Origin: Bifidobacterium mellis
GTDB taxonomy: Bacteria; Actinomycetota; Actinomycetes; Actinomycetales; Bifidobacteriaceae
Assembly: GCF_000967265.1 (NCBI RefSeq)
Contig: NZ_KQ033885.1
Span: forward strand, 911,538-975,537
DNA length: 64,000 nucleotides
Reading direction: 5' to 3'
Shown here: positions 2,704 to 49,853 of the stretch, in pieces
Numbering within the stretch: the stretch's first letter is position 1
Layout of the letters: every line of letters begins with the position of its first letter
The notes under the pieces: model-generated
The model's database searches: none
Seen by the model: only the letters and a program-made list of their open reading frames with translations
What the model was told of the DNA's origin: nothing
Position numbers and translations under genes: made by a program

Positions 2704-2727
2704 GCGCCTGACTGACAGTCGCTGCCA

Positions 2728-2779
2728 ATAATAATTGTGCCCCCGTCCGGCTCAAACCGCACGGGGGCACAATTATTAT
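2728..2779. terminator. Bidirectional terminator between tal and cpfC
   Basis: A perfect 19-bp inverted repeat (2728-2746 and 2761-2779) encloses a 14-nt loop. The GC core (GTGCCCCCGT) is flanked by AT-rich ends (ATAATAATT), so either strand gives a GC hairpin followed by a T-rich tail. It lies between the convergent stop codons of tal and cpfC. Confidence 0.92.
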
Positions 2780-2807
2780 CTCAACTATATTTCAAGCAGA
2801 GGTGTGA

Positions 2808-3731
2808 CTACTCTGCCTTGGCCTCCTCGACCACCTGCCGCAGGGTGGCGATCAGAGCTGGGCTGTCGTTGGGCATGTTCAGCCTGGTCAGGGTGCCGCC
2901 GGCGGACTCGATGGCCTTGGCCAGCTCCATGTCCACGTCGTAGCAGATCTCCAGGTTGTCGGCGATGAATCCGATGGAGGCGGAGACAATGGTCTTCATG
3001 CCGCTCTCGGTGATCAGATCCTTGGCCACGGTGACGAAATCAGGCCCGATCCAGGGCTCCTCGGTGCGGCCTGCCGACTGCCAGGCCAGTATGTACTGGT
3101 CCTCATTGAGACCGGCTGCCCGGGCCACGGCATTGGACAGACCGATGACCTCATCCTTGTAGGGGTCCCCTCCCTGGATGATGCGCAGGGGCAGGGAGTG
3201 GGCGCTGAAGATCACCTTGGTGTCCGGCCGGTCGGTCAGATCCTTCTTGGCTACCAGCTGGTCGCTCCAGAAGTGGATCAGCTCCTGGTGGTTCCACCAG
3301 GACCGGACCGGCAGGTACTCCATGCCCGGATGGGCCTCGATGGCCTTGCGGGCGCGGTTGTGGTAGTCCTCGCTCGAATAGGAGGAGTACTGCGGGGCCA
3401 GCGGCAGGCCGATCACCCTGGTGATGCCATCGGCGGCGATCTGGTCGACCGCATCCTGGATGAAGGGGGTGATGTACTTCAGCCCCTCGTAGACCTTGTA
3501 GGCGCCGGGATGGGCCTTGTCCAGCGCAGCCTGGAGGCCGTCGCGCTGGGCCGTGGTGATCCTGGCCAGGGGCGAGGGCAGACCGATGGCCTTGTAGCGG
3601 CCGACCAGCTGGTCCATGAGCGGCTTGGGCGGCTCCTGCCCATGGCGGATGTTGGTGTAGTACCCCCTGATGTCGGACTCCTGGTAGGGGGTGCCGTAAG
3701 CCATGAGGAGGACTGCTGTAGGTTCAGTCAT
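2808..3731 (-). CDS. cpfC: Coproporphyrin ferrochelatase (Bacillota-type)
   Basis: Inserts Fe(II) into coproporphyrin III to give coproheme, the penultimate step of the coproporphyrin-dependent heme pathway. 307 residues. The family motif FSAHSLP carries the metal-binding His (His178) and ADNLEICYD carries the conserved Glu (Glu261); AYGTP at 11-15 matches the Tyr12/13 region of the B. subtilis enzyme. There is a single Cys (263), so the four cysteines that bind a [2Fe-2S] cluster in many actinobacterial ferrochelatases are absent. Recalled comparison makes it closer to B. subtilis HemH (YGTPY..D...YYT.IR.G) than to actinobacterial forms. The ATG at 3731, behind GAAAGAAG, is preferred over an in-frame TTG at 3737; it overlaps the end of the MFS gene by 8 nt, implying translational coupling. 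Confidence 0.93.
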   Translation of the reverse strand: MTEPTAVLLMAYGTPYQESDIRGYYTNIRHGQEPPKPLMDQLVGRYKAIGLPSPLARITTAQRDGLQAALDKAHPGAYKVYEGLKYITPFIQDAVDQIAADGITRVIGLPLAPQYSSYSSEDYHNRARKAIEAHPGMEYLPVRSWWNHQELIHFWSDQLVAKKDLTDRPDTKVIFSAHSLPLRIIQGGDPYKDEVIGLSNAVARAAGLNEDQYILAWQSAGRTEEPWIGPDFVTVAKDLITESGMKTIVSASIGFIADNLEICYDVDMELAKAIESAGGTLTRLNMPNDSPALIATLRQVVEEAKAE

Positions 3732-5121
3732 CAGCAACTTCTTTCTGTGAAAATGGAATGCAGTATGTCAGGCCGATATTGACCAGGGCTATGACGATGA
3801 CCACCAGGAACATGTTCCTGTAGGAGGCCAGCCCGGCCTGTCCACCCGCCTTGCCCAGCTCAATGGCCGAGGCGAAGAGCAGGGGGGCGATGGTGGTGCC
3901 GATCTTCTTGCAGGCCGACAGCCCGCCGATGGCCTGCATGCGGTTCTCGGGCCCGGCCAGCCTTCCGGCGATGACCTGGAGCGGCGAGGACATCATGGAG
4001 CCCATGCCGACCCCCATCAGGAAGGACAGGACCATGAAGAGCTGCAGATTGTGCAGGGTCAGGGTGATCACCAGGGCCATCAGGCCTATCAGCGATGAGG
4101 AGAAGACGAGCGTGGTCCGGTAGCCGAACTTGTCGACCAGGAGACCGCCCAGCCAGGACCCGACCACGGAGCCGAGCCCGACGCCGACCATGACCATGCC
4201 GGCCGAGCGGACCGGGAGCCCGAAGACGGAGTGGACATAGGTCGGAATGTAGACGAAGAGGGAGAAGAACATGCCTCCCAGCGTTCCCAGCAGCAGGGTG
4301 AGCCCGTAGGAGGGCAGCTTCAGCAGGCGGATGGGCAGGAAGGGCATGGTTTCCTTTGAACCGCCCAGATTGCGCTCATGCACCAGGAAGACCGCGCCGG
4401 CCACCACTGTGACCAGGAAGCACCCGATGATCAGGGCCAGATAGGCGGTTCCGTACTGGAGGAAGGTGATCGCCACCATCAGCAGTGCCAGGGCGATGCT
4501 GAAGGAGCCCAGGCCCAGGTAGTCGGTCTTCCAGGCGCGGTCGGTCTGGGAGTCGCCCATCATGAACCAGGCCAGAATAAACAGGATGGCCAGGAAGGGC
4601 AGCATCATGAAGTAGTAGGCCCGCCATCCGTGGGTGATGCCCAGGAGCATGCCCGAAAGGACCGGGCTGACCATGGCGGAAAGGCCGGCGATGATGCCCA
4701 CCGTGGAGACCTTCCTGCCCTGGTTGTTCCTGCGGGCGCGCTGCAGAAGGACGTTCATGGACAGGACCATGATGCCGCTGTCTCCCAGGGACTGGATGAA
4801 CCGGCCCAGCAGCATGACCGCATAGTTGGGCGAGACCGCCGTCATCAGACATCCAAGGAACCAGAAGGCCAGCTCCCAGAGGAAGACCTTCCTGGTCCCG
4901 TGGGCGTCGGAAAGGTTGGAGGTGATGGGGGTGCCCACCACCAGTCCCAGGGTGTAGAGTCCGACCACCCAGGAGGAGCCCATGGTGGTCAGGCCGAAGG
5001 TCCGTGTGATGGACGGCAGCATGGTCGGCACCGCTCCCCCATCCAGCTGGGTGATGAAGACGATGACCATGAAGAACCATATGGGCGTGGAAAGGATCGA
5101 TCTTCTCTCTCTTGTCGACAT
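3724..5121 (-). CDS. MFS transporter, DHA2-like, inside the heme operon
   Basis: Integral membrane protein of 465 residues with about 14 hydrophobic segments, fitting the 14-helix drug:H+ antiporter group of the major facilitator superfamily. The loop LSDAHGTRKVFLWE after helix 2 is the family's motif A, and LLVDKFGYRTTLV is the matching loop in the second half. It begins 4 nt after the chdC stop and overlaps the cpfC start by 8 nt, so the three genes are surely co-expressed. The family alone would suggest multidrug export. The position between the two last heme-pathway enzymes suggests a porphyrin or heme substrate (import of coproporphyrin, or export of surplus porphyrin or heme); this is inference from context only. 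Confidence 0.85.
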   Translation of the reverse strand: MSTRERRSILSTPIWFFMVIVFITQLDGGAVPTMLPSITRTFGLTTMGSSWVVGLYTLGLVVGTPITSNLSDAHGTRKVFLWELAFWFLGCLMTAVSPNYAVMLLGRFIQSLGDSGIMVLSMNVLLQRARRNNQGRKVSTVGIIAGLSAMVSPVLSGMLLGITHGWRAYYFMMLPFLAILFILAWFMMGDSQTDRAWKTDYLGLGSFSIALALLMVAITFLQYGTAYLALIIGCFLVTVVAGAVFLVHERNLGGSKETMPFLPIRLLKLPSYGLTLLLGTLGGMFFSLFVYIPTYVHSVFGLPVRSAGMVMVGVGLGSVVGSWLGGLLVDKFGYRTTLVFSSSLIGLMALVITLTLHNLQLFMVLSFLMGVGMGSMMSSPLQVIAGRLAGPENRMQAIGGLSACKKIGTTIAPLLFASAIELGKAGGQAGLASYRNMFLVVIVIALVNIGLTYCIPFSQKEVADD

Positions 5122-5125
5122 GGTG

Positions 5126-5884
5126 TTACTGTCCCATCTGGTCCGTGAGCAGCCTGTCGATGCGCTCGGGATCGGTATGGGTGCCTACCAGGAAGTAGGG
5201 GAATTCGCCGTAGATGGAACTGGCTTCGATGTAGCGCATCTCGGTGACGATCTTCTTGAATTGGACAGGGTCGTCGGCGAAGAGCGTGACACCCCACTCG
5301 TAATCGTCCAGGCCGATGGAACCCGTCAGGATGATGGAGACCTTGCCGGCGTAGGAACGGCCGATCTTGCCATGGTCGTGCATGTAGGCCTTGCGCTGGT
5401 CGTAGGGCAGCGTGTACCAGTTGGCTCCGGGCACACGGGTCTTCGACATGGGGTAGAAGCAGATGTAGGGCTTGTCGGGCGTCTTGGGATGCAGGCTGGC
5501 ATTGACGTAGGACCAGCCACGGTCCGTGGTCGGCTTGCCCGAGTAGAGGCCCACCTCGGTGACCGACACATAGGAGATGGTCGGCTCCAGGTAATCGGAC
5601 AGGCGCAGCTTCTCCAGGGAGGTCTCGACCTCCTGCAGCTGATCCAGGGTCTCCCTGAGGACCATCAGGCCCAGGTCGGCCTTCTGCCCGTTGACCTGGC
5701 ACCAGTAATGGCTTCCCTTGCCCTGGGACTGGACCTCGTCCAGTTGTGCGGCCAGGGCCTTGAACTCATCCAGGCATTCCCGGCGTTCGTCCTGGGGCAC
5801 TCGGCGCCACTTGGCCCAATCGATTTTCCAGAAGAGGTGAAGGCAAAACCAGCCCTCCAGACTCGGTGCAGCTTGCTCAGCCAT
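5126..5884 (-). CDS. chdC: Coproheme decarboxylase (HemQ/ChdC, chlorite-dismutase family)
   Basis: Oxidatively decarboxylates two propionates of coproheme with H2O2 to give heme b, the last step of the coproporphyrin-dependent pathway. 252 residues, typical of the Bacillota form. Seen: CFYPM with the radical-forming Tyr (Tyr144), HGKIGRSYAGKV with the proximal heme His (His171), DDYEWGVTLF, and MRYIEASS with the Arg217/Ser222 pair that binds propionates. The position of the distal Gln of Listeria and Geobacillus enzymes is Ile184 here. The ATG at 5884 (MAEQ), 7 nt after AAAGGAAG, is chosen over the upstream start at 5920, which lacks a ribosome site. First gene of the chdC-MFS-cpfC operon. 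Confidence 0.94.
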   Translation of the reverse strand: MAEQAAPSLEGWFCLHLFWKIDWAKWRRVPQDERRECLDEFKALAAQLDEVQSQGKGSHYWCQVNGQKADLGLMVLRETLDQLQEVETSLEKLRLSDYLEPTISYVSVTEVGLYSGKPTTDRGWSYVNASLHPKTPDKPYICFYPMSKTRVPGANWYTLPYDQRKAYMHDHGKIGRSYAGKVSIILTGSIGLDDYEWGVTLFADDPVQFKKIVTEMRYIEASSIYGEFPYFLVGTHTDPERIDRLLTDQMGQ

Positions 5885-6064
5885 GAGCACTTCCTTTCGC
5901 TTGCTTAGCTTGCACGGCATTGTGTGATGCGCCGCTCATCCGGCACACCGTTTCCACCTTATCCGTTGAGCGACTGAATCGTTGGATTATCGGTGCATAG
6001 TGAATGACATATTGTGGTAATAGTCAAGGACTATAGGTCTTGAACCAAAGTCGTCCGGATATGG
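5885..6064 (-). promoter_or_regulatory. Leader and probable promoter region of the heme operon
   Basis: About 180 nt of non-coding sequence between chdC and the secG terminator must hold the operon's promoter. On the minus strand a TTGACT hexamer lies at 6027-6022 but no good -10 stands 16-18 nt from it. TTCAAG with TATTAC 16 nt downstream is an alternative. An imperfect inverted repeat (TGAC..TATT / AATA..GTCA, 6005-6026) overlaps this zone and could bind a regulator. None of this is decisive. Confidence 0.35.
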
Positions 6065-6088
6065 AAAAACCCCGGTCGATGCCGGGGT
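6065..6088 (-). terminator. Terminator of the pgk-tpiA-secG group
   Basis: On the minus strand, a 7-bp stem (ACCCCGG / CCGGGGT, 6069-6088 with a 6-nt loop) is followed directly by TTTTT (6069-6065). It lies 29 nt beyond the secG stop. Classic intrinsic terminator. Confidence 0.9.
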
Positions 6089-6116
6089 CGGGTATTTCAG
6101 GTATTGTCTGTCGGAA

Positions 6117-36026: not shown

Positions 36027-36089
36027 GACTTATCCCCTGCCTTTCCTCAGGCCCGCAACGGCTCTGATGTCTGCGGAACCGATACAGGC

Positions 36090-36116
36090 ATTATAGGGGT
36101 GACGGTCGTCAGCCCC
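36090..36116 (-). promoter_or_regulatory. Candidate glnE promoter with spacer palindrome
   Basis: A consensus TATAAT stands on the minus strand at 36095-36090, giving a leader of about 57 nt to glnE. The -35 region is weak. The spacer holds an inverted repeat TGACG-GT-CGTCA (36100-36111), extended by GGGG/CCCC, which could be an operator or a hairpin. Confidence 0.4.
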
Positions 36117-36159
36117 AGTTGGACCAGCATGGCAATTCCGCGTTTGTATGAATAATGGC

Positions 36160-37329
36160 TTATTCGTCAGCTGGCGATTTTGTCGATTCTTTAACAACAA
36201 CGATGCGCTGGTTTCCCGCAAAATCGATAAAATCCTGTGCGTAAGGAGAATCAGCCGAAGGTGTTCCATAAGCACCCGTGCCCTCCGCTTCCAAGGAATT
36301 ACGCCATGGAAGGCACCATAGCATTCGAGTAGTGAACTGATTCGCTTCCAAGGCGGAAAGCAGATAGCCTGTCCAAGGACGGGAATCATATAGATCTTCC
36401 CCATCTCTTCCATTGTTAAGTCTTGAGGCAAAAGCTCCTGGAGAACCGATTTCCGTAGCAGCCGCAAGCTTTCCCCGCTCTTCGGCGAGACGTCCGACCA
36501 GGGTGAGCATAGTAATAAGCTCCTCATGCTGCTTTGTTGGACTTTTGCTTGAAGGATGCTGATCCATGTCCCAATAATCGTCGATTCCGAGCACATCGAC
36601 ATAGTCGTCTCCCGGATACCCGTACAGATATTCCTCTGTCATAGCAGCTTTATTGGTTAGGTCTATTCTACTGCGATCCGGGGAATAGGCATACAGCACA
36701 TGGTGAATACCACAGCTATTCCTCAAATAATCAATACTCATTCGCCATAATTGCCTGAACTCCTCTTCTGAGGTGTCAGTTGCTTGCATGGGGGAACCGA
36801 GGGACCACCAGAACCAGGTGCCATTGTGCTCATGAAAAGGCCTAAACACCACAGGAATCGGTAAGTTGTCGTCATCGGTCAAAGAGTTGAGCATCGTAGC
36901 CACACGGTCAAGCCAGTCAAGAAAGCGCCCATGGCAATTGCCTCCCGGCAGCACTGCACGAACAGAGCCTGGAGCTATATTGCTACCGTATCCACCGCCG
37001 GTGACCGGGTTTACCGAGTGCCATGTGAGGGTGGGAATTGCACCGATATTGTTTGCATGCAAAACCTCTTGATGAATATGGGCAAAAGAAACATCATCGA
37101 TATTCTTTTCCCAACCCAATTCAATACGCCCCAGATCAAACCCCCAAATGGCGGGGTATGCTCCCGTAAGAGTCGCAACATCACTGTCGCATTCGTGCAT
37201 GCGTCGGCATAGTGTAGTGTCCTGGTGGCCGAGCATTGTTTTCTTCCCGGTCAATCGCCTTAAACGCGAGTACAGACTTAGTAATTGATCGGTTGGATGG
37301 CTATCGATGGGCGACCCTATATGATGCAT
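36160..37329 (-). CDS. GH26 beta-mannanase-family glycosidase, cytoplasmic
   Basis: Predicted to cleave beta-1,4-mannan or manno-oligosaccharides. 389 residues forming a single GH26 domain. VFRPFHEHNGTWFWW carries the acid/base Glu167 and ATEIGSPGAF the nucleophile Glu293. Other family marks are GHQDTT, WHSVNP and VLYAYSPDRS. There is no signal peptide, sorting motif or carbohydrate-binding module, so it should act inside the cell on imported oligosaccharides, or as an exo-acting mannobiohydrolase. ATG 37329 follows AGAGGAG. GC content is visibly lower than in glnE next door. Operator-like sequence lies upstream at 37436-37447. Confidence 0.9.
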   Translation of the reverse strand: MHHIGSPIDSHPTDQLLSLYSRLRRLTGKKTMLGHQDTTLCRRMHECDSDVATLTGAYPAIWGFDLGRIELGWEKNIDDVSFAHIHQEVLHANNIGAIPTLTWHSVNPVTGGGYGSNIAPGSVRAVLPGGNCHGRFLDWLDRVATMLNSLTDDDNLPIPVVFRPFHEHNGTWFWWSLGSPMQATDTSEEEFRQLWRMSIDYLRNSCGIHHVLYAYSPDRSRIDLTNKAAMTEEYLYGYPGDDYVDVLGIDDYWDMDQHPSSKSPTKQHEELITMLTLVGRLAEERGKLAAATEIGSPGAFASRLNNGRDGEDLYDSRPWTGYLLSALEANQFTTRMLWCLPWRNSLEAEGTGAYGTPSADSPYAQDFIDFAGNQRIVVVKESTKSPADE

Positions 37330-37548
37330 ATCTCCTCTTTCCAGGCAGTTGCTTTATCGATTAGAGCCTCTGAACCGACGCCATGACTAAGGTCATAACA
37401 AGAACAGACATCCAACTATGGCAAAGTCGCACAGATGAATCGGTTCAGTTATACTGAAATATAGCATCGTAATCAGTGATTTACCTATTTGACTTCTTAT
37501 TGCTGAGTCTGACGTGACTCCTGAGAAGCTACAGAAAGGAGGATTGCA
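37330..37548. promoter_or_regulatory. Divergent regulatory region of GH26 and the 37549 gene
   Basis: Holds a LacI-type operator TGAATCGGTTCA at 37436-37447 and an isolated half-site TGAACCGA at 37371-37378, closer to GH26. TATACT (37450-37455) on the plus strand is a possible -10 without a good -35. AAAGGAGG at 37536-37543 is the ribosome site of the plus-strand gene. Confidence 0.6.
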
Positions 37549-38319
37549 TTGACTGCGCCGAAAGAGCACCGTTCCAAAGCTGTGGATGCCTTGGCATCGT
37601 CTCGAGTGAGGACTGGAGGCCGGATCGCCGTTTTGCAATCGCTTTCAGGGAAAAAACGCTGGTCTTACTTTGTCGATCATTTTTTGATTCTAATTATCGC
37701 GATTATCACCATATGCTGCTTGTTGATCTGGCTGATCATGCACATTCTGAACCCGGCTCCCGGCCCCAAGCTATACGTAGCTCTTGTTGATCATCCCATA
37801 GAGAGTGCAGAAGCAGATGAAATGAGCTCGCAAGCAGCAATGACCCTGCATATGAAAGCAGATGATAATTCCGGTTTGGTTGTCGATGACGGGTTTGATT
37901 GTTCGCGTGATGGTCTTCCTAAACTTCAGACCATGCTCAGTGCCGGTACTGTCGATGTGATCATTGCACCAAAGAGCACCTTCGCTCGGTTGGCCAGTTA
38001 TGGATATATGAGTGACTTGAGCCAAATTTTCCCGGATAAGCAGTTTGGCAAACAAGCGCTTTTGCCCGGTCCAACAGATGACGGCCAGGACGACGACGCA
38101 GAAGCCTCAATGAACAAAGGCCCGGTAAAGCCTTATGGTTTAATGTGCGATTCCATTCAAAATCAGCGCTGGCAACCACACCAGAAAAAGAAAGCGAAAA
38201 GCACGGATTTGCAAAGGCCAAACAGCGCATCGTCTGATCAAGCAGTCATTGGACTGGCAGTGAATAGTCCTCACATGCATGATGCTGCACGGTTCGCGAA
38301 GTTTGCGTGTGGAAGGTGA
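37549..38319 (+). CDS. Membrane-anchored protein of unknown function, partner of DUF624 protein
   Basis: 256 residues with a TTG start set by AAAGGAGG 6 nt upstream. The basic N terminus (1-43) would lie in the cytoplasm. One transmembrane helix spans about 46-68 (ILIIAIITICCLLIWLIMHI) and about 185 residues lie outside. The outer part starts LYVALVDHPIES and contains LSAGTVDVIIAPKSTFARLASYGYM and NSPHMHDAARFAKF, faintly like lobes of solute-binding proteins, though too short for one. I do not recognise a named family. The next gene begins 4 nt downstream, so the two proteins probably act together. Confidence 0.75.
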   Translation: MTAPKEHRSKAVDALASSRVRTGGRIAVLQSLSGKKRWSYFVDHFLILIIAIITICCLLIWLIMHILNPAPGPKLYVALVDHPIESAEADEMSSQAAMTLHMKADDNSGLVVDDGFDCSRDGLPKLQTMLSAGTVDVIIAPKSTFARLASYGYMSDLSQIFPDKQFGKQALLPGPTDDGQDDDAEASMNKGPVKPYGLMCDSIQNQRWQPHQKKKAKSTDLQRPNSASSDQAVIGLAVNSPHMHDAARFAKFACGR

Positions 38320-38323
38320 ACCG

Positions 38324-38953
38324 ATGGCATCTATGTTTCGACAGGACAGCCCGTATAATACCGTAATGTCAGCCCTCGGAGACTTAGCTATACTCAATAT
38401 TTGCTGGATCATATCCTGTATACCCCTGGTTACCATAGGTGCAGCCGACACAGCCTTGTACACCCAGATCGACCAACTTCAAACTGGCCGCGGAAGCCAT
38501 ATGATCAGACACTTCTTCCGTGGCCTGATTAAAAATAAGTTACGGTCATTCAAATTGACAATCGTGATGGCATCCCTAGTCTTTTTGACCGGCTTTGACC
38601 TATGGTATTTTTCCAACGGGATGATTGGCTCTGATTTGTCTTCACTGGCTTACGGCATCGTTGCGACAACTTCTTTTGTGTTAATGGCGGCTGGTTCATT
38701 CGTGTTTCCGCTAGCCGCTCGGAGCGACGCAAAGGCTATGCAACTGATAACAGCATCAGCGCGGCTGGCCTTGCTGCATCCCTTATATGCATGCGCAATA
38801 ACCGCTTTGAAGCTATTGCCCCTGATACTCGTGATCGTTGCACCTGACGCGCTTCCTGTCATTGGGATTGTATGGAGCATTGCGGGAACAAGTGTCACAG
38901 CGTATATTACGAATGCAATTTTACTCCGGGTTGCTCCTCGACCTGCACCATAA
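38324..38953 (+). CDS. DUF624 (YesL-like) membrane protein
   Basis: 209 residues with about five hydrophobic helices. The N-terminal layout (SPYNTVMSALGDLAILNICW, then IPLVTIGAADTALY) is typical of the YesL/DUF624 family, which is found next to sugar ABC transporters of oligosaccharide loci but has no proven biochemical role. ATG 38324 is used because GGAAGGTG precedes it and it starts 4 nt after the upstream stop. Convergent with the LacI gene. Confidence 0.85.
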   Translation: MASMFRQDSPYNTVMSALGDLAILNICWIISCIPLVTIGAADTALYTQIDQLQTGRGSHMIRHFFRGLIKNKLRSFKLTIVMASLVFLTGFDLWYFSNGMIGSDLSSLAYGIVATTSFVLMAAGSFVFPLAARSDAKAMQLITASARLALLHPLYACAITALKLLPLILVIVAPDALPVIGIVWSIAGTSVTAYITNAILLRVAPRPAP

Positions 38954-38996
38954 TCGTAGAACATGTGATTGAATGACCAGTCTTGTGTCTAAAGAG

Positions 38997-40028
38997 TCAG
39001 TGGATTCTCAGGGGGCCACTCGACTGGCGGAAAATGAGACTGCTATCATCCTCTCTTTGAGAACGGACTGTGTCTCCGGCAATCAAAGCCAGCATCATTT
39101 GAGCTGCTTTCCGACCTCGTGCCACAACGTCGCGGTCCAGTGCTGTGATACTAGGCAGGCCGACCTCGCACATAAAGGAATTGTTCCATGAAATCACCGA
39201 AAGGTCGTCAGGGATGCGCAGCCCCATGTCCGCAATGGTCTTGAGCGAAGAAAGCGCCATTACATCGCTGTCATAAACGATGGCAGTCGGCCTTTCAGGT
39301 AATTGCAAGAATCGTTTCGTGCTTGCTCGTGCTTCATCAGGCGAATAATCAGTGTGAAAACAACTATACTGCAAACCTAATTCCGCTACTTCCTCGACAA
39401 AGGCATTATCTCTGATGAAAGTATGCTCCAAAGTCTCGGGTCCAGCTATTCTTGCAATCTTGCGATGACCTATTTCATGCAAATAATCAACAATAAGATG
39501 AGCCGCACTCTGAGCATCGTCAGACAAAGACGGCAACCCATCGGCAATTGAGACATCGCACAAAGCCAGCACAGGCATATCAGGGTGACGCTTGAATAAA
39601 GCCATCCGTGGGTCGCCCAGCTCCAGGTTCATGATCAACGTGGCGTCAACTGCACCGGCACTGATCCATTCTTTGAGAATAGCCACCTCCTGTTGCCGAC
39701 TTTGCGAGGATCGCAATAATAAGGAATAACCCTTCTTCTCCAGCTCTGTCGTCAACCCGGCGATAAGTTCCATTGTGTAGGACTCGACTGAAAGGATACC
39801 GGTATCGTACGTAAGCACGAGTCCCACATTGTGGGTCTTGGCATCGGAAAGCGCCTTGGCCGCGCTGTTAGGCCGCCATCCGAGATGTTCGGCTACGTCC
39901 AATACCTTTCGCCGTGTTTTGCTTGAAACACCAGGTTTGCCGTTGAGAGCATAGGAGACAGCACTGTTGGAGACGCCAGCCTCGTGGGCCACATCAGAAA
40001 TAGTCACTTTCGACTTCGGCAATACCAT
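38997..40028 (-). CDS. LacI-family transcriptional regulator of the mannan locus
   Basis: 343 residues. N-terminal helix-turn-helix with hinge (VTISDVAHEAGVSNSAVSYALNGKPGVSSKT, about 7-60) and a periplasmic-binding-like sugar-sensing core (VGLVLTYDTGIL to the end). Likely effector is mannobiose or a short manno-oligosaccharide, by context only. ATG 40028 with GGAG 8 nt upstream is preferred to the TTG at 40046. Last gene of the SBP-permease-permease-GH2-LacI run. Operators resembling LacI sites occur at 37436, 46558 and 46734. Confidence 0.93.
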   Translation of the reverse strand: MVLPKSKVTISDVAHEAGVSNSAVSYALNGKPGVSSKTRRKVLDVAEHLGWRPNSAAKALSDAKTHNVGLVLTYDTGILSVESYTMELIAGLTTELEKKGYSLLLRSSQSRQQEVAILKEWISAGAVDATLIMNLELGDPRMALFKRHPDMPVLALCDVSIADGLPSLSDDAQSAAHLIVDYLHEIGHRKIARIAGPETLEHTFIRDNAFVEEVAELGLQYSCFHTDYSPDEARASTKRFLQLPERPTAIVYDSDVMALSSLKTIADMGLRIPDDLSVISWNNSFMCEVGLPSITALDRDVVARGRKAAQMMLALIAGDTVRSQREDDSSLIFRQSSGPLRIH

Positions 40029-40126
40029 GCTCTGTTCTCCCGTCAATGCATAGTTTGGAAAGGAGGGCGAATGCAGACCCGTGCACTTAATGCAGCACGT
40101 ACGAAGCTATTCTAGTAGCCCAAGAT

Positions 40127-42838
40127 TCACCGATGGCATTCTCGCAAATCATTGGCGCAACACAGCACACGTTTTTGGACGAAAACCCGGGGATCCACTT
40201 TCTTTCGCGAAGCTATATGCCAGTTCAGACTTTCTCCCGGGAGCAAAGACACCATTCCACCATCGATGGAAGCTGAAGAATCAATTTTGTCAACCATGCA
40301 GAAGATATCGCGAGCGTACGCATTGGCCGTAATCTTCAAAAGATATCCATCTGTGCACGTTTTTGCCTCTACTGATAGAGGATTGGGATTCAAACGCTGA
40401 TCGATCACTTCAGCAAAGTCGTAAACGGTTCTGGCAAATGTCGTATCACAGCACTCCTGACCATTCGGCGCAGCCACAAGCAGCTCATTATATGGATCGG
40501 AGCAGGTTGCCACTTCGTCGTTCAGCAAGAGGGTCCTTTTACTCAACCGTTCTGAATCGACGTGAAAAACCTGCTGCGCTAATACAGTTCCCCCTAAGGT
40601 ACGTCGTTCAACCTTCCAAGTCATATGGCGGTCACAGATGCTGTCGTTGATCAGCACGAGAGCGAGGCTGTCTGGATCCACCTGGGAACCCTCCCAGCTC
40701 CGATCCTGTAGCCTCTGATCGGAAGTCCAGGGCTGAATTGTCGCAAGGCAGGGCGCGAAGCATGAGCGCGCCACAAACCAAAGTGGCTTTTTATGGCCGT
40801 CGTAGTCTATCGCCGACCAGGAAATAACCGGCCAATCATCGTTGAGCTGCCAAATCAAGGTTCCAGCATTAAGCGGTTCCAATGACCTCATATGTTCCAG
40901 CCCGTAACGAATTGCCTGCCCTTGTTGCAACTGGCAGGCCCAGTGCCAATCCTCCAGATCACTCCAACGGTCACTGGGGATTAACCAATTTCGTGAGCCA
41001 TCCGAATCGTAAGCGATGTCATCAAATTGTCCTGGAGTCAAATGGGACCGCATGCCCTTTGCCAGTTTTTCATTACCGGACGAGGCTTTTTGGTGGGCCA
41101 ACATCTGAGGAGAGGACGGCCCAGGCTGAGGATCGTGGATTACTCTCATCAAAGTGCTCCAGGCAGGAGGGGCTTGGTATCCAAATTCATCAGCGAAACG
41201 AGGACGATAAGCGCGGTATCGATGGTAATCAGCATTGTTCCATACATCCCAGATATGCATAGTGCCATCCGTATCGGCATTGGCGTCCACAAACGGAGTG
41301 AAACTCATGGGAGAACTTGGTAGATAAACCCGAGTATTATCCAGTCTCTTCAGCAGTTTGGGCAGTAGCGTAGAATAGTAATAATTTCCCCACCCCTTTT
41401 CGCCATAGCCGTATGCGTTCTTCGGTTCTTGATCGTCGTTCAAGGCCTGTTTGAAACCACCCCATTGCGCATATGCGACATAGTTTTCATTAGAACCATT
41501 CCATACAACCAGACTCGGATGCGGGCATAATCTGCTTATCTGCTGTATTGCCTCAGTTTCGACTTCTTGCCGCATTTCGGCTGTTTCTGGATATGCAGCG
41601 CATGCAAAAGCGAAATCCTGCCAGACCAGGATTCCATACTCATCTGCTAAATCGTAAAATTCATCTGTTTCGTAAATGCCGCCTCCCCATGCTCTGACCA
41701 TGTTGGCGTTTGATTCGACAAGATCTTGGAATCGTGCTCGATATGCCGGTGAATCCGCCCGGGAAATAAATGCATCCAGAGGTACCCAATTGAATCCTCT
41801 TGCGTGAATTGGAAGCCCGTTGATATATAAGCGGAAAGGACGTCCATTCTTATCTGCCCTGGTATCCACCGTAACCGTACGAAAGCCGATTCTTCCCTTC
41901 CATTCGGCCGTTCCGACACGCACACACAGATCGTATAGAGGCTGTTCCCCGTACCCGCGTGGCCACCACAGCATGGCTTCAGGAACCTTCAAAGTCGAAA
42001 CCAGTTCAGAAACTCCATAGGCAATGGTTCCCCCCACAGCCTTTCTCGTCCCATGACCTTCAACCGTCAGTTGATATTCCATCGGAACATTCTCCGAAGG
42101 CGGTTGCTTGTCTGACAGAGACGTAGAAAGTCCAGCCCAGTCGAGATCCACATGAACCTCAGCAACGCCGGTGCCATCATCCTGCACCTGAATGGACGGA
42201 CGCACGGCTCGGATTCTTGTCTGTGACCAAGAATCAATGCCGATTGGCCTCCATATACCAACTCCGGCCACATCAATGCCCCAATCCCATCCAAATTGGA
42301 AAGCCGGCTTGCGCAGTTGATTGAATGCGTGATGCTCCGTATGCGGATAATACCCGATAAGCCTTTCGCGCTTTTCAGACTCTCGAACAGGCGAATTCAG
42401 AGTAACGACCAACGTATTTATACCTTGTTGCAGAAAACCGTCAACATTCCATCGGTAGACGCAATGGAAATTCCTGCCGGTCCCCAGCAAACGGCCATTG
42501 AGTTGCACCAAAGCCACGGTGTCTAACCCGTAAGCCACCAAGTCATGACATTGCTGACCATCTTCATGCCATACGAATTGACATGTGTATTGCCAATCAA
42601 TATCGCCAATCCACTGTTGCATCCGCTCATTGTCGCCATCAAATGGATCGGGTATCAGCCCCGCCCTCAGAAGGTCCAGGGTAACCTCCCCCGGTACTTC
42701 TGCAGGAAGACCCTCACGGAGTCTTTCTCGAAGATTGGTCGGAGCCTTTTCGGGATTGAGTGCCCGCACGATCCAATCTTTGTCGAGTGATAGGAAACGC
42801 GCAGAATCACCTGATGAGTGCAACTGTCCAGACGTCAT
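40127..42838 (-). CDS. GH2 beta-mannosidase
   Basis: Removes mannose from non-reducing ends of beta-manno-oligosaccharides in the cytoplasm. 903 residues. The N-terminal jelly-roll domain has the sequence FGWDWGIDVAGVGIW characteristic of mannosidases within GH2. The barrel carries NMVRAWGGGIYE, the acid/base Glu451 in VVWNGSNEN, and the nucleophile Glu551 in FADEFGYQAPP. C-terminal beta domains follow. No signal peptide. It lies downstream of the two permease genes and would finish what GH26 starts. Confidence 0.94.
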   Translation of the reverse strand: MTSGQLHSSGDSARFLSLDKDWIVRALNPEKAPTNLRERLREGLPAEVPGEVTLDLLRAGLIPDPFDGDNERMQQWIGDIDWQYTCQFVWHEDGQQCHDLVAYGLDTVALVQLNGRLLGTGRNFHCVYRWNVDGFLQQGINTLVVTLNSPVRESEKRERLIGYYPHTEHHAFNQLRKPAFQFGWDWGIDVAGVGIWRPIGIDSWSQTRIRAVRPSIQVQDDGTGVAEVHVDLDWAGLSTSLSDKQPPSENVPMEYQLTVEGHGTRKAVGGTIAYGVSELVSTLKVPEAMLWWPRGYGEQPLYDLCVRVGTAEWKGRIGFRTVTVDTRADKNGRPFRLYINGLPIHARGFNWVPLDAFISRADSPAYRARFQDLVESNANMVRAWGGGIYETDEFYDLADEYGILVWQDFAFACAAYPETAEMRQEVETEAIQQISRLCPHPSLVVWNGSNENYVAYAQWGGFKQALNDDQEPKNAYGYGEKGWGNYYYSTLLPKLLKRLDNTRVYLPSSPMSFTPFVDANADTDGTMHIWDVWNNADYHRYRAYRPRFADEFGYQAPPAWSTLMRVIHDPQPGPSSPQMLAHQKASSGNEKLAKGMRSHLTPGQFDDIAYDSDGSRNWLIPSDRWSDLEDWHWACQLQQGQAIRYGLEHMRSLEPLNAGTLIWQLNDDWPVISWSAIDYDGHKKPLWFVARSCFAPCLATIQPWTSDQRLQDRSWEGSQVDPDSLALVLINDSICDRHMTWKVERRTLGGTVLAQQVFHVDSERLSKRTLLLNDEVATCSDPYNELLVAAPNGQECCDTTFARTVYDFAEVIDQRLNPNPLSVEAKTCTDGYLLKITANAYARDIFCMVDKIDSSASIDGGMVSLLPGESLNWHIASRKKVDPRVFVQKRVLCCANDLRECHR

Positions 42839-42960
42839 TATTTTCCTTTTCCACGGCTAGCCGGTTTATACCCGGCCACTGAAATATTCATAACCGAGGC
42901 ACAAGTAAATTGATCTCGTCGCCTCTGCATCAACATCTATGTTTTGTCAGGGAGAGTGAT

Positions 42961-43854
42961 TTACTCCTTGACTGCTCCAGCTGCTATACCGGTGTATATC
43001 TGCTTTTGGAAAAGCAGGAACAACACAAGCATCGGAAGCAGAGTCAGAATCACTCCTGCGCAGATAAGATTGTATTTGCTCCCCTGCGGACCAGTGAAAG
43101 TATACAGCGCTATGGCAACGGTCTTCAAATGCGCACTTTGCAGATACAAGTTTGCAGCATAATACTCGTTATAGACCCCAACACCTTTCAGAATGACGCA
43201 GGTAACGATTGCAGGCTTAAGCAACGGCAACAGGATCTTTGAGTAGACGGTGAAATATGAAGCACCATCCACTATCGCGGATTCATCCAAAGAAATTGGA
43301 ATATTCTCAAAATACTGTATAAAAACGTATATGGAGATCACATCAGTGCCCATCGACATGATGATGTATCCCCACAGCGAATTGACTGCGTGCATGCCAA
43401 CCATCATTTTATACAAGGCCACCTGCATTGCAATGCCGGGCAAGAGAGCAGCCACAGTAAACAGCCCTCTGATAAGAGTATTGCCTGGAAAAGTGAATCT
43501 GCTTAGAACGTAGGCAAGCTGCGTGCCAATCAAGGTAGTACAGACTAAAACGACCACAAGAATAATAAACGAGTTCTTAAAGGCGTTACCCATATTGGAG
43601 AGATTAAAAGCATTGATATAGCTTTGTATATTGAACCAGTTCTTTGGCAACTGCGTAACTGTGGTTGTGGCGTATTCCTTATCTGTCTTGGCCGCGGTGA
43701 TCACACAGCTTATCAAAGGCAGCATAAACCAGAAAGCCAGGAATATCAGTATTGCATATTTGAGCACATTGAAGACGGCATCCTTGAGGACCGGTGGATT
43801 CGCTCGGGATCGGCCTAGTTTGCCGATGGTCGCGGTCATCTTTTTCGTCTGCAT
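42961..43854 (-). CDS. Sugar ABC transporter permease (MalG-like)
   Basis: 297 residues with six transmembrane helices. The cytoplasmic EAA loop reads ESAIVDGASYFTVYSKILLPLLKP, which docks the ATPase. ATG 43854 overlaps the upstream permease stop as TGATG, so translation is coupled. No ATP-binding gene is in the locus; as in other Gram-positive sugar importers, a shared MsmK-type ATPase encoded elsewhere is expected. Confidence 0.93.
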   Translation of the reverse strand: MQTKKMTATIGKLGRSRANPPVLKDAVFNVLKYAILIFLAFWFMLPLISCVITAAKTDKEYATTTVTQLPKNWFNIQSYINAFNLSNMGNAFKNSFIILVVVLVCTTLIGTQLAYVLSRFTFPGNTLIRGLFTVAALLPGIAMQVALYKMMVGMHAVNSLWGYIIMSMGTDVISIYVFIQYFENIPISLDESAIVDGASYFTVYSKILLPLLKPAIVTCVILKGVGVYNEYYAANLYLQSAHLKTVAIALYTFTGPQGSKYNLICAGVILTLLPMLVLFLLFQKQIYTGIAAGAVKE

Positions 43855-44912
43855 CACTGCCCCCGTTCCAGGCTGTAAGCCCTCTGTCTTCTACCATTTG
43901 CAAGCAGTGGTGCCTTGCCCGCAGCGATGCGATTCCTTTGACGCTTGGCACGCCGGGCACGCCTTTTCGCTGCTTTAACGCCATCATCCTGATTGCGGAA
44001 AAGGAATTTGAATAGGATCTGCTGTAAAAGTGCGAATATCAAAATGACAATCAACAAGACGACAGCCATAGCCGAAGCCAAACCTACTTTTTGATTTGTA
44101 TGTGCTATGCGGTCCATAAGAACGAAATAACTTCCTGTGCCGTTGGCCCCAGTGGTTATAACGAATGGAATCTCAAAAACACTTAGGGCTCCAGTAACCG
44201 ACAGCACAACATTCAGAACCAGGATCGTTTTGATGCTCGGAAGAATTATATGTAGAAATTGCTGAAACTTATTGGCCCCATCTATTTCGGCAGCCTCATA
44301 GAGCGACTGGTCAATCGACATGATGGCTCCTATGAACAGAATCATGGTTTGGCCCATATATCGCCACACGGAGGCGCCCACCAATGACCAGTTGTTGATG
44401 GACTGATCCTTAAGCCAATAAGGCAGGCTGTTCAGGCTGAAACCGCACCATTGAAGCACGCTGTCGAATATGAAACCCCTCGTATAGAAGAATTTAAATA
44501 TAAAACCGACAGCTATTCCATTGATCAGGTAAGGAAAGAAGAACAAACCCTTAAAAAGATTGCCGCATCGTACCCGAAAACTCAGTATGGTTGCAAGATA
44601 CAATGCCAGTGAAATATGAAGTACTGACCCCGCCATGTAATATAAGCTCAGTTTCAGAGAGGGCAGTATGTCCGGCCTTGTCACAATCTGGCGATAATTC
44701 TGCAATCCGACCCAATGGGGGACACCAATATATTTCATGCGATAGAAACTGAATCCAACCATTTGCCCGAAAGGCAGATAAGTGAAAACAACAAGAAGCG
44801 TCAATGGAATGGCGCAAAAGGCCACGATAATGATGCCTTTTCGCCAATCAAAGGGCCGCTTGTTGTCCGGAACTTCAGGAGACAGCGAAGATCCAACCAT
44901 TGTTGCTGTCAT
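43854..44912 (-). CDS. Sugar ABC transporter permease (MalF-like)
   Basis: 352 residues. Six transmembrane helices, an EAA loop (YEAAEIDGANKFQQFLHIILPSIK), and a basic C-terminal tail (KAAKRRARRAKRQRNR) on the cytoplasmic side. ATG 44912 has AAGGAG 6 nt upstream; the longer reading from 44981 lacks one. It forms the membrane channel with the next permease for the lipoprotein encoded upstream. Confidence 0.92.
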   Translation of the reverse strand: MTATMVGSSLSPEVPDNKRPFDWRKGIIIVAFCAIPLTLLVVFTYLPFGQMVGFSFYRMKYIGVPHWVGLQNYRQIVTRPDILPSLKLSLYYMAGSVLHISLALYLATILSFRVRCGNLFKGLFFFPYLINGIAVGFIFKFFYTRGFIFDSVLQWCGFSLNSLPYWLKDQSINNWSLVGASVWRYMGQTMILFIGAIMSIDQSLYEAAEIDGANKFQQFLHIILPSIKTILVLNVVLSVTGALSVFEIPFVITTGANGTGSYFVLMDRIAHTNQKVGLASAMAVVLLIVILIFALLQQILFKFLFRNQDDGVKAAKRRARRAKRQRNRIAAGKAPLLANGRRQRAYSLERGQ

Positions 44913-44939
44913 AACTCCTTCTTCCTCGATCTGTCCGGA

Positions 44940-44966
44940 CTGCCGACGGTAAAGTGCCGTCGGCAG
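44940..44966 (-). other. Intercistronic hairpin after the binding-protein gene
   Basis: A perfect 10-bp stem (CTGCCGACGG / CCGTCGGCAG) with a 7-nt loop starts 21 nt beyond the binding-protein stop. No T run follows, so it more likely protects the upstream mRNA or partly terminates. Either would give more lipoprotein than permease, as is common in sugar ABC operons. Confidence 0.6.
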
Positions 44967-44987
44967 CCTCTTGATCAGCATGGATAC

Positions 44988-46391
44988 TTACTTGCCTGCT
45001 GTGTCATACTGCGCTTCGATACCTTCTGTCTCCAGAGCATCATTCCACTTGGAATTCCAATCCTTGACCAGGTCATTGTATGGTTTGTCATGCTTGGAAG
45101 CATGCTCAACAATGGCTTGAATTCGCGCATTGCCGCCCGCATTAACAGCGAGCTCCGAGTCAGAATTCAAAGTATTGAACAGGTCCTCTTCGCCTTTGAC
45201 AGCTGGCTGGTCCTCGACAAAACGAACATCAGCGAATTCCTTGTAGGCATCAGGCATGCTCTTGTCAGATTGCGCTGTAGGTATGCCTCCCTCGTTCTTG
45301 GCAAAGCCGGAAAGCTCGGTCATCCATTTGATGAAGATCATGGATGCCTCTTGGCGAGTCTTGGACACATGGCTATTGATGCCGTATGCATAATCCCCGG
45401 CAGAAACGGTGTATTGCTTGTTTTTGACGCTGATCGGGAATGGCATATAACCGATATCGTCCGGATGGTCTGCAGCATTCTTGCATTGTGAAACCGCCCA
45501 GGCACCTAGAACCATTGTGGCTATCTCGCCTCTGTTGATTTTGGCTTTGCTTGACTCCCAGTCGGTCGTAGAATAATCATCTTCGGTCAAGCCGTCTGAA
45601 ACAGCATCATAAAGAATCTTATAAACATTGTAAGCGTGAGTGTCATCTCCCGGATCAGAGAACGGATTTTTGGTGTGCAACAGCTTCTGGTTCATATAAC
45701 GCCCATCTCCAGTGGCATTGACGCCAATGTATCCGTCCCAAGCTGCCATGGTCCAACCCGCGGCATAATTAGTATAAAGTGGTATAGCCTTTGTCTTCTC
45801 TTTGATAGCTTTCAGGGCCTGAATAAATTCCTGAGGCGTTTTTGGATTCTCACTAACCCCAGCTTCTTTGAAGATTCGTTTGTTGTAGACGATCCCCAGA
45901 CCGTTTCCATTGCTCGGTACGCCATATACTTTCCCGCCATATTCAGATGCACTGGACCAACGAATCAACTTTGACATCTCCTCTTGGGTGCCAAAGGGTA
46001 GGAAATATGTACTCAGATCAGAACGATCCACTGCAGGTATCATCATCATGTCGCCCCAATCCTTGCCCTGCAGCCTCGTTAAGGCATCGCCGGCATAATT
46101 GGTATCGGTTTCAACTTCAACGGAGATGTTTGGATACAGCTTGTTGAAATCAGCGACGTACTGCTTCCAGTTTTTCCCAGGATAAGTATCAACAGACATG
46201 TCTGTTTTGTGATTGAAAAGCTTGATTTTGGTGTGAATATCCTTTCCGGTAGTACCGAGTTTGATGGATGAGTAATTCAGTTTTGTCGCTTGGGCATTTG
46301 AATCATCAGCTCCGTTTCCTCCGCATCCGGACAAGGGCCAAAAACATAAGCCGGCCATGGCTACTGCAATCAACTTGCGTGCATTCTTCAT
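44988..46391 (-). CDS. Extracellular solute-binding lipoprotein, sugar ABC transporter
   Basis: 467 residues, family 1 sugar-binding protein. The N terminus is a lipoprotein signal (KNARKLIAVAMAGLCF) with lipobox LSGC, cleaved before the Cys near residue 25. The mature part has the usual LQGKDWGDMMMIP and YGVPSNGNGLGIVYNK features of oligosaccharide binders. ATG 46391 follows GAGGAG. First gene of the minus-strand operon and, from context, the manno-oligosaccharide receptor. A promoter with an overlapping operator lies 140-180 nt upstream. Confidence 0.92.
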   Translation of the reverse strand: MKNARKLIAVAMAGLCFWPLSGCGGNGADDSNAQATKLNYSSIKLGTTGKDIHTKIKLFNHKTDMSVDTYPGKNWKQYVADFNKLYPNISVEVETDTNYAGDALTRLQGKDWGDMMMIPAVDRSDLSTYFLPFGTQEEMSKLIRWSSASEYGGKVYGVPSNGNGLGIVYNKRIFKEAGVSENPKTPQEFIQALKAIKEKTKAIPLYTNYAAGWTMAAWDGYIGVNATGDGRYMNQKLLHTKNPFSDPGDDTHAYNVYKILYDAVSDGLTEDDYSTTDWESSKAKINRGEIATMVLGAWAVSQCKNAADHPDDIGYMPFPISVKNKQYTVSAGDYAYGINSHVSKTRQEASMIFIKWMTELSGFAKNEGGIPTAQSDKSMPDAYKEFADVRFVEDQPAVKGEEDLFNTLNSDSELAVNAGGNARIQAIVEHASKHDKPYNDLVKDWNSKWNDALETEGIEAQYDTAGK

Positions 46392-46532
46392 TGAAATCTC
46401 CTCGTTGAAATCCACTGATATTCACTTATGCGACATTTTGAGCGGTTCCGATAAAGGCCACCTATTGGCCTTATTGGAAATAGTTCAGCATCGATTCATT
46501 CCTGAATCACATGAATGGAGTCGATACTTGAC

Positions 46533-46569
46533 AAAATAGCAACCCATGGTCTTTTTGTCAACCGGTTAA
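46533..46569 (-). promoter_or_regulatory. Promoter and LacI-type operator of the transporter operon
   Basis: On the minus strand a consensus -35 TTGACA (46561-46556) is followed after exactly 17 nt by -10 TATTTT (46538-46533). The operator-like palindrome TTAACCGGTTGA (46569-46558) overlaps the -35 box, so a bound repressor would block RNA polymerase. Confidence 0.8.
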
Positions 46570-46724
46570 GTTCATTTCTGCAAACCTGCTTTTTGCTCGG
46601 TTATTACGCACTCTAAAATCATCCCCAGCAAAATCGCTGCAATATGGGGTAAACAGTGATAACATCCAGCCGTTCATTTCCTGGCATTCAGTTATAAATA
46701 CCGGCGATCCTACCTTATTGCATT

Positions 46725-46753
46725 TTGCTACAATGAATCGGTTCAGTTATTAT
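46725..46753 (+). promoter_or_regulatory. Promoter and LacI-type operator of the esterase genes
   Basis: -35 TTGCTA (46725-46730) and -10 TATTAT (46748-46753) are 17 nt apart, and the operator TGAATCGGTTCA (46734-46745) fills the spacer. The 18-nt string around it recurs exactly at 37435-37452, upstream of the GH26 and DUF624 genes. Confidence 0.82.
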
Positions 46754-46861
46754 TTAATTGATAAACACAAACAGTGAGGTTGCATGCCGTTCGACCTCGA
46801 GACGAACACGACGGTTGCTGTCTGTCATCGTCGAATGGCGTTGGGATGAGAGGCGTTGTCA

Positions 46862-48016: not shown

Positions 48017-48030
48017 CAGAAAAGGCTCTG

Positions 48031-49824: not shown

Positions 49825-49853
49825 ACCAAGGCGACTTCAATAGAAGGAATTCA

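What the first reader, a model, noticed from the sequence alone, without database searches (positions are those of the whole stretch)
2808..5884. Three-gene terminal heme operon: chdC - MFS - cpfC without upstream porphyrin genes
The operon encodes coproheme decarboxylase and coproporphyrin ferrochelatase, the last two steps of the coproporphyrin-dependent pathway. An MFS transporter lies between them with a 4-nt gap and an 8-nt overlap. Catalytic residues are kept (CpfC His178/Glu261; ChdC Tyr144/His171/Arg217/Ser222). No hemA, L, B, C, D, E or Y gene is in the window, and bifidobacteria are generally thought unable to make heme. Because CpfC accepts the oxidised porphyrin, imported coproporphyrin III (which some bacteria excrete) would suffice to make heme b. 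This could be a porphyrin-salvage module, perhaps serving a catalase or cytochrome bd.
Basis: partly seen in the sequence, partly recalled or inferred. Interest (0 to 1): 0.88.

Follow-up and report, generated by a model that had tools for sequence, protein, structure and literature searches.

The report
Mobile operon finishing heme from coproporphyrin
A bee-gut bifidobacterium that seems unable to build porphyrins itself carries a three-gene set, shared with lactic acid bacteria and found there on plasmids, that most likely takes up coproporphyrin shed by other microbes and finishes it into heme for its oxygen-using enzymes.

Summary
On the minus strand lie chdC (5126-5884), an MFS gene (3724-5121) and cpfC (2808-3731), spaced and with residues as stated. 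The host genome (99.99% complete) has no HemB, no URO-D protein and no CgoX/HemY over cut-off, but has cydA and catalase, so salvage fits. Strain PRL2011 (2012) was already reported to hold the final three steps.

New here are reach and mobility. The ordered triplet is in 22 of 189 Bifidobacteriaceae genomes (21 intact, one damaged), with wrecks in two more; in 5 of 397 sampled Lactobacillaceae (one damaged); and on 13 Lactococcus/Enterococcus plasmids. No Bifidobacteriaceae carrier has HemB; all 23 with ChdC have cytochrome bd. ChdC is of Firmicutes type; the three genes travel together.

Best explanation: a mobile coproporphyrin-salvage cassette with the MFS as porphyrin transporter. Direction of transport is inferred: its relatives are mostly exporters. 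Against it: 11 lactobacillus plasmids keep MFS+cpfC, but chdC is full-length in only one of them and has a stop codon there; four genomes have three tandem cpfC copies; 27 genomes have cytochrome bd without ChdC. New variant of a known kind.

The parts
5126..5884 (-). chdC (hemQ), coproheme decarboxylase, Firmicutes type, 252 aa
   Evidence: NF008913 306 bits over cut-off 253; HemQ_actino only 72 of 235; solved HemQ 1t0t 256 bits and Listeria lmo2113 239 bits; Y144, K148, H171, R217, S222 kept; I184 and S130 replace Gln and Arg
3724..5121 (-). MFS transporter, 465 aa, 14 helices, proposed coproporphyrin transporter
   Evidence: MFS_1 162 bits; best NCBIfam efflux_EmrB 112 bits, below cut-off 230; AlphaFold2 model pLDDT 77.5 with 14 long helices; lies between chdC and cpfC wherever these two lay together in the loci read
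2808..3731 (-). cpfC (hemH), coproporphyrin III ferrochelatase, 307 aa
   Evidence: TIGR00109 212 bits over 124.6; chains named coproporphyrin III ferrochelatase 234 bits, mitochondrial ferrochelatase 112; H178 and E261 kept in 35 of 35 rows
5885..6033 (-). own leader/promoter region of the operon (conserved block)
   Evidence: block from about 6033 to the ATG conserved in 10 of 10 asteroides-group rows, sequence beyond it differs in 3 (L004, L006, L009); no promoter of the tool's consensus found here
2722..2790 (-). hairpin after cpfC, probable terminator shared with tal on the other strand
   Evidence: -42.4 kcal/mol, z -8.9; not listed by the consensus scan
6060..6110 (-). probable terminator of secG, separates the operon from secG-tpiA-pgk
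   Evidence: -15.7 kcal/mol hairpin followed by T run, z -3.0 (sequence); not listed by the consensus scan

Best explanation
The three genes form a horizontally mobile coproporphyrin-salvage cassette. The MFS protein carries coproporphyrin III (or a metal form of it) shed by other microbes into the cell, CpfC inserts ferrous iron to give coproheme, and ChdC decarboxylates coproheme with hydrogen peroxide to heme b for cytochrome bd and catalase. Shown: gene order, families, kept catalytic residues, no HemB, URO-D or over-cut-off CgoX in the genome, presence of cytochrome bd genes and catalase, the same triplet in other families and on plasmids. Inferred: the enzymes' activities, the substrate, and inward transport by the MFS. 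The last step is the weakest.
For: Families and residues. Own genome lacks HemB (control rings in 11 of 14), URO-D (control 7 of 14) and CgoX over cut-off (controls over cut-off 4 of 14). HemB in 7 of 189 Bifidobacteriaceae, all in genus g6, which has no ChdC. Triplet in 13 of 27 genomes of the own genus g1, all intact, plus two wrecks, and 9 of 112 of g5, 8 intact. All 23 ChdC carriers lie among the 50 of 189 with CydA (hypergeometric 5e-16, not corrected for kinship); in g5 9 of 9 carriers among 25 of 112 with CydA (4e-7). In g1 all 14 ChdC genomes are among the 18 of 27 with catalase (1.5e-4). 5 of 397 sampled Lactobacillaceae have ChdC, all five with MFS and cpfC next to it, one MFS broken. 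chdC-MFS-cpfC in this order on 13 of 13 Lactococcus/Enterococcus plasmids by coordinates (one read with annotation). HemB in 1 of 5 lactobacilli with the triplet, there beside cobalamin genes.
Against: The nearest MFS families are drug exporters; direction cannot be read from the fold. On 11 of 11 lactobacillus plasmids MFS and cpfC are adjacent, but chdC covers 80% or more in only 1, and that one (L191) has an internal stop; in L189 and L190 it is truncated. G126 keeps cpfC without chdC. So cpfC, perhaps with the MFS, may be useful without ChdC. Four genomes have three tandem cpfC copies. 27 of the 50 CydA genomes lack ChdC, so these get heme otherwise and the carriers might too; within g1 the CydA link is not significant (0.10). 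One lactobacillus carrier (G190) has HemA, C, B and L over cut-off. The bifidobacterial ChdC lacks the distal Gln. CgoN, another coproporphyrinogen oxidase (PMC10965808, abstract start only), and HemA, L, C, D were not searched in the own genome.
Confidence: 0.58

Rival explanations
1. Same two enzymes make heme from coproporphyrin that enters by another route, and the MFS protein is an exporter that removes surplus heme, coproheme or coproporphyrin as a safety valve.
For: Closest sequence families are EmrB, SdrM, Tet(K/L) and FexA exporters; structures of 14-helix exporters EfpA and MHAS2168 align over the most residues (428-440).
Against: Without own porphyrin synthesis the cell needs an entry route for the substrate, and the MFS is the one transporter found with both enzymes in Bifidobacteriaceae, Lactobacillaceae and Lactococcus/Enterococcus. 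All profile matches shown are below cut-off.
Confidence: 0.2
2. Iron scavenging or porphyrin chelation: CpfC runs in reverse and strips iron from imported heme or coproheme, or loads another metal; the MFS handles the porphyrin; ChdC is secondary.
For: Reverse action proposed for enterococcal HemH (PMC11282960, passage). MFS+cpfC kept on 11 lactobacillus plasmids with chdC partial or absent in 10 and stop-bearing in the eleventh; cpfC alone in G126; tandem cpfC copies in four genomes.
Against: ChdC is intact and in front in 21 Bifidobacteriaceae genomes and without internal stop on the Lactococcus plasmid read; all Bifidobacteriaceae with ChdC have CydA. A decarboxylase making heme is pointless in heme breakdown. 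The lactobacillus plasmid copies compared are 99.3-99.7% alike, so they are not independent cases, though the two truncations begin at different residues.
Confidence: 0.15
3. Remnant of an ancestral complete pathway whose upstream genes were lost.
For: Only the last steps remain; upstream genes tested are missing.
Against: ChdC is Firmicutes type and groups with lactobacilli and Lactococcus; in 12 of 13 genomes of the genus without chdC, secG lies within 1.5 kb of tal without the triplet between; the transporter travels with the enzymes on plasmids.
Confidence: 0.04

Closest known systems
Coproporphyrin-dependent heme pathway of Bacillus/Listeria/Staphylococcus (CgoX-CpfC-ChdC)
   Same: Same last two enzymes and main catalytic residues; ChdC 45-52% identical to Bacillales, CpfC 41% to a Listeria protein
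   Different: No HemB, URO-D or over-cut-off CgoX in the genome; an MFS gene is wedged between the two; distal Gln and Arg of ChdC replaced
B. asteroides PRL2011 respiratory gene set (Bottacini 2012, PMC3447821)
   Same: Same lineage; [quoted passage not shown]
   Different: The word ferrochelatase does not occur in its main text; the passages I saw do not speak of porphyrin import, the MFS gene, lateral transfer of these genes or plasmids; it tested hemin and protoporphyrin IX
Leucobacter ASN212/GP dependence on heme or coproporphyrins of neighbours (cited in PMC6868719)
   Same: Actinobacteria; GP lacks hemABCE and has downstream genes; coproporphyrins named as growth factors for ASN212 (passages and reference titles)
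   Different: Transport of heme precursors is called uncharacterised; strain GP was not rescued by coproporphyrin; no mobile cassette in the passages
DHA2-type 14-helix MFS exporters (EmrB, EfpA, NorC)
   Same: 14 helices, fold, best profile match
   Different: Score below the curated cut-off; gene neighbours are porphyrin enzymes

Membership tests
Coproheme decarboxylase ChdC | Scores over NCBIfam equivalog cut-off | tested here: met
   NF008913 306 vs 253 bits
Coproheme decarboxylase ChdC | Catalytic Tyr, proximal His, Lys, Arg (residue roles recalled) | tested here: met
   Y144, H171, K148, R217 in 27 of 27 triplet rows and 67 of 67 Bacillales rows
Coproheme decarboxylase, Firmicutes subtype | Distal Gln (role recalled) | tested here: not met
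   I184 in 11 of 11 g1 rows; P in 8 and I in 1 of 9 g5 rows; Q in 7 of 7 lactobacilli and 67 of 67 Bacillales. Recalled as Ala in actinobacterial ChdC, so not a mark of the whole family
Coproporphyrin ferrochelatase CpfC | Ferrochelatase family over cut-off, catalytic His and Glu (roles recalled) | tested here: met
   TIGR00109 212 bits; H178, E261 in 35 of 35 rows
Coproporphyrin ferrochelatase CpfC | Uses coproporphyrin rather than protoporphyrin | not testable with these tools
   Only similarity: 234 bits to chains named coproporphyrin III ferrochelatase vs 112 to mitochondrial ferrochelatase
Complete coproporphyrin-dependent pathway | HemB present | tested here: not met
   0 matches in own genome
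Complete coproporphyrin-dependent pathway | CgoX (HemY) present | tested here: not met
   0 of 189 over cut-off, own best 32 bits vs 97.85; CgoN not tested
Complete coproporphyrin-dependent pathway | HemA, HemL, HemC, HemD present | not tested
DHA2 MFS transporter (EmrB subfamily TIGR00711) | Over curated cut-off | tested here: not met
   112 vs 230 bits
DHA2-like 14-helix MFS architecture | Two extra helices between the six-helix halves | tested here: met
   helices 201-221 and 224-252 in the best model, pLDDT 77.5; the five models had 77.5, 74.1, 55.2, 53.0 and 52.4
Porphyrin importer | Inward transport of coproporphyrin | not testable with these tools
   needs an uptake assay

The most novel reading that the evidence does not exclude
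The MFS protein is a dedicated bacterial coproporphyrin III (or Zn-coproporphyrin) importer, and the cassette is a plasmid-spread device that lets fermenting gut and food bacteria of two phyla turn a porphyrin discarded by neighbours into heme, switching on respiration and catalase without porphyrin synthesis of their own.
Probability: 0.47. Interest if true: 0.78.

Novelty: new variant of a known kind. Interest (0 to 1): 0.62.

Why it matters
Many lactic acid bacteria and some bifidobacteria have heme enzymes but no heme pathway, and are usually thought to need ready-made heme (my general knowledge). A transferable cassette that starts from coproporphyrin would make shed coproporphyrin a shared resource in bee guts, dairy and plant ferments; Zn-coproporphyrin III is secreted by a cheese actinobacterium (PMC6104308, passages). 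It also names a testable candidate for a bacterial coproporphyrin transporter, which my ten literature searches did not turn up.

Tried and rejected

Literature: searches in the held open library; I saw no paper describing the triplet or its plasmid spread in these lists and passages; subscription papers and preprints are not held. Passages only were seen of PMC3447821, PMC9004370, PMC11282960, PMC6868719, PMC6104308, PMC11139205, PMC10991733 and PMC6098607 (a Lactococcus plasmidome; no heme or ferrochelatase word).

Full report
Observation. The operon is present as described. On the minus strand chdC (5126-5884), an MFS gene (3724-5121) and cpfC (2808-3731) follow each other with a 4-nt gap and an 8-nt overlap. 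Profiles place ChdC and CpfC over curated cut-offs. A strong hairpin follows cpfC and a terminator-like hairpin follows secG upstream (neither is in the consensus scan), and a block of about 150 bases in front of chdC is conserved in 10 of 10 aligned asteroides-group rows, so the three genes look like one self-contained unit. The residue roles and Listeria numbering used here (Tyr147, His174, Gln187, Arg133, Ser225) are recalled; the alignments are.

Host. The window lies in a 2.13-Mb genome of 6 contigs, 99.99% complete. The best matches for ChdC in the named collection are eight Bifidobacterium records (B. apousia, two B. asteroides strains, B. mizhiense, B. polysaccharolyticum, B. choladohabitans, sp. 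7101, sp. B4142), with the whole triplet at 90-99%. I call this the asteroides group.

Pathway in the genome. HemB: no match in the own genome; 7 of 189 Bifidobacteriaceae genomes have it, all in genus g6, which has no ChdC. URO-D proteins: none in the own genome; 43 of 189 have one, the best at 82 bits, which I read as methyltransferase-like relatives. CgoX/HemY: 0 of 189 over the cut-off; own best 32 bits against 97.85, a short N-terminal match in a 550-aa frame (only 4 of 14 controls pass the cut-off). HemA, HemL, HemC, HemD and the alternative oxidase CgoN were not searched. Without HemB no known route to porphyrins remains (established knowledge). Heme users: cydA at C2:215777 with cydB, two ABC subunits and a pyridine-nucleotide oxidoreductase beside it; catalase at C2:175397 with an Nramp gene and an iron-dependent-repressor-type regulator beside it.

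Distribution in Bifidobacteriaceae. ChdC in 23 of 189 genomes: 14 of 27 in the own genus g1 and 9 of 112 in g5 (genus sizes). In g1, 13 have the ordered triplet without internal stops; cpfC is next to tal in all 13, and secG was seen on the other side in 12 (in G133 the stretch ends first). G143 has fragments of chdC and cpfC with stops and no MFS at that same site. In the 13 g1 genomes without chdC, secG was seen within 1.5 kb of tal and without the triplet in 12; in five the gap is 320 bp or less. What fills the longer gaps was not checked. G126, one of these 13, keeps a C-terminal half of the MFS and a full cpfC about 100 kb from tal, and its CpfC groups with G015 rather than with g1, so it has a separate history. 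In g5 all nine loci keep the order, at places where tal and secG were not found; eight are free of internal stops, in G095 cpfC is cut to residues 6-58 and chdC holds one stop. Four g5 genomes have three tandem cpfC genes; the extra copies keep His and Glu but have F or L for Tyr12, as have 3 of 7 lactobacillus CpfCs with F.

Link to heme enzymes. All 23 ChdC carriers are among the 50 of 189 with CydA. The chance probability is 5e-16 for the family and 4e-7 within g5, but 0.10 within g1, where 24 of 27 have CydA; these figures ignore kinship. All 14 carriers in g1 are among the 18 of 27 with catalase. The reverse does not hold: 27 CydA genomes have no ChdC, so other heme sources must exist.

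Beyond bifidobacteria. Five lactobacillus records carry the triplet in the same order. In 397 sampled Lactobacillaceae genomes 5 carry ChdC, each beside the MFS and cpfC. Of the seven lactobacillus loci in all, five are free of internal stops; L012 has a broken MFS and L014 a stop in chdC. None of the 67 Bacillales ChdC loci fetched has a CpfC match at E 1e-8 in the stretch held, and two have a weak MFS match above 80 bits, some kilobases off. HemB is present in 1 of 5 triplet-bearing lactobacilli tested, there with HemA, HemC and HemL over cut-off and cobalamin genes beside them.

Plasmids. 13 plasmid records (11 Lactococcus, 2 Enterococcus faecalis) carry ChdC, MFS and CpfC in this order on one strand, by the coordinates; one was read with its annotation, with IS6 elements on both sides. 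The window MFS matches that MFS at 32% over 442 aa and 191 bits, an unrelated neighbour MFS at 45 bits. 11 lactobacillus plasmid records carry MFS and cpfC next to each other. Of these, chdC reaches 80% coverage in one (L. reuteri), and there it holds one stop; in two others read it is cut to residues 157-249 and 201-249. The region is 99.3-99.7% identical in DNA between Companilactobacillus, Lentilactobacillus, Lactiplantibacillus, Loigolactobacillus and Limosilactobacillus, which means recent transfer. So in this plasmid lineage chdC is often lost while MFS and cpfC stay. That is the strongest point against the plain salvage reading there.

Origin. Triplet ChdCs of g1, g5 and lactobacilli form one branch against 17 Bacillales (100/100), with the Lactococcus plasmid enzyme next to them (long-branch warning). 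ChdC scores 306 bits with the Firmicutes-type model and 72 with the actinobacterial one. The residue matching Listeria Arg133 is R in 67 of 67 Bacillales but S, A or H in 27 of 27 triplet rows and H in Lactococcus, a mark of the cassette enzymes. The CpfC tree rooted on the single Lactococcus row nests bifidobacteria among lactobacilli. I take transfer from lactic acid bacteria into bifidobacteria as likely, not shown. Base composition of the operon (62.7% GC against 61.4% for the window) suggests that the arrival was not recent.

The transporter. The best model has 14 long helices (ten rows, two of five models above pLDDT 70). Its best profiles are exporters, all shown below cut-off; UriT, named a uridine transporter, also matches weakly. 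Structural matches are general MFS. Sequence and fold do not say which way it works. The import reading rests on logic: no synthesis found, and one transporter that travels with the two enzymes.

Prior knowledge. PRL2011's genome paper states enzymes for the final three steps from coproporphyrinogen III (passage) and tested hemin and protoporphyrin IX (passages). PMC9004370 suggests that lack of the peroxide-dependent heme synthase may explain why relatives do not take up oxygen, and that bifidobacterial HemN may be HemW (passages). Coproporphyrins as growth factors are known for Leucobacter ASN212 (cited in PMC6868719, passages); strain GP was not rescued. Enterococcal HemH has been guessed to run backwards (PMC11282960, passage). 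I found no account of the triplet as a mobile unit.

Verdict. Interest 0.62; higher if import is shown.

Noticed in passing
window 36030-49850: Low-GC island (48.8% against 61.4% for the window) with sugar ABC transporter-like, LacI-like and large hydrolase-like frames; these names are guesses from sequence starts.
   Followed up: partly
L109, L110, L111, L114 (G098, G103, G105, G096): Three tandem cpfC copies behind chdC-MFS; copies 2 and 3 keep His and Glu but have F or L for Tyr12, so their metal or porphyrin may differ.
   Followed up: partly
L191 6205-6945, L014 6386-7126, L189 8667-8945, L190 5581-5727: chdC broken in different ways (stop, or truncated) while MFS and cpfC next to it are intact.
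   Followed up: partly
L187/L188 (G144): tal, next to the triplet, is split into two frames in G144 (residues 1-246 and 245-369).
   Followed up: no
L118 9381-9671 (G136): secG beside the triplet shows one internal stop in G136.
   Followed up: no
L189 13255-13743, L190 10037-10525, L191 9868-10356: A PAS-domain protein lies downstream of MFS-hemH in all three lactobacillus plasmids read (annotation; Pfam PAS for L189); possibly a sensor or regulator.
   Followed up: partly
L128 (G186): One genome of genus g15 has a single ferrochelatase of another type (TIGR00109 299 bits) and no ChdC.
   Followed up: no
L192 1836-4778: A multicopper oxidase and a second, unrelated MFS gene precede hemQ-MFS-hemH on the Lactococcus plasmid.
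   Followed up: no
G143 contig C25: G143 has an intact cydA and fragments of a second cydA about 5 kb further on.
   Followed up: no
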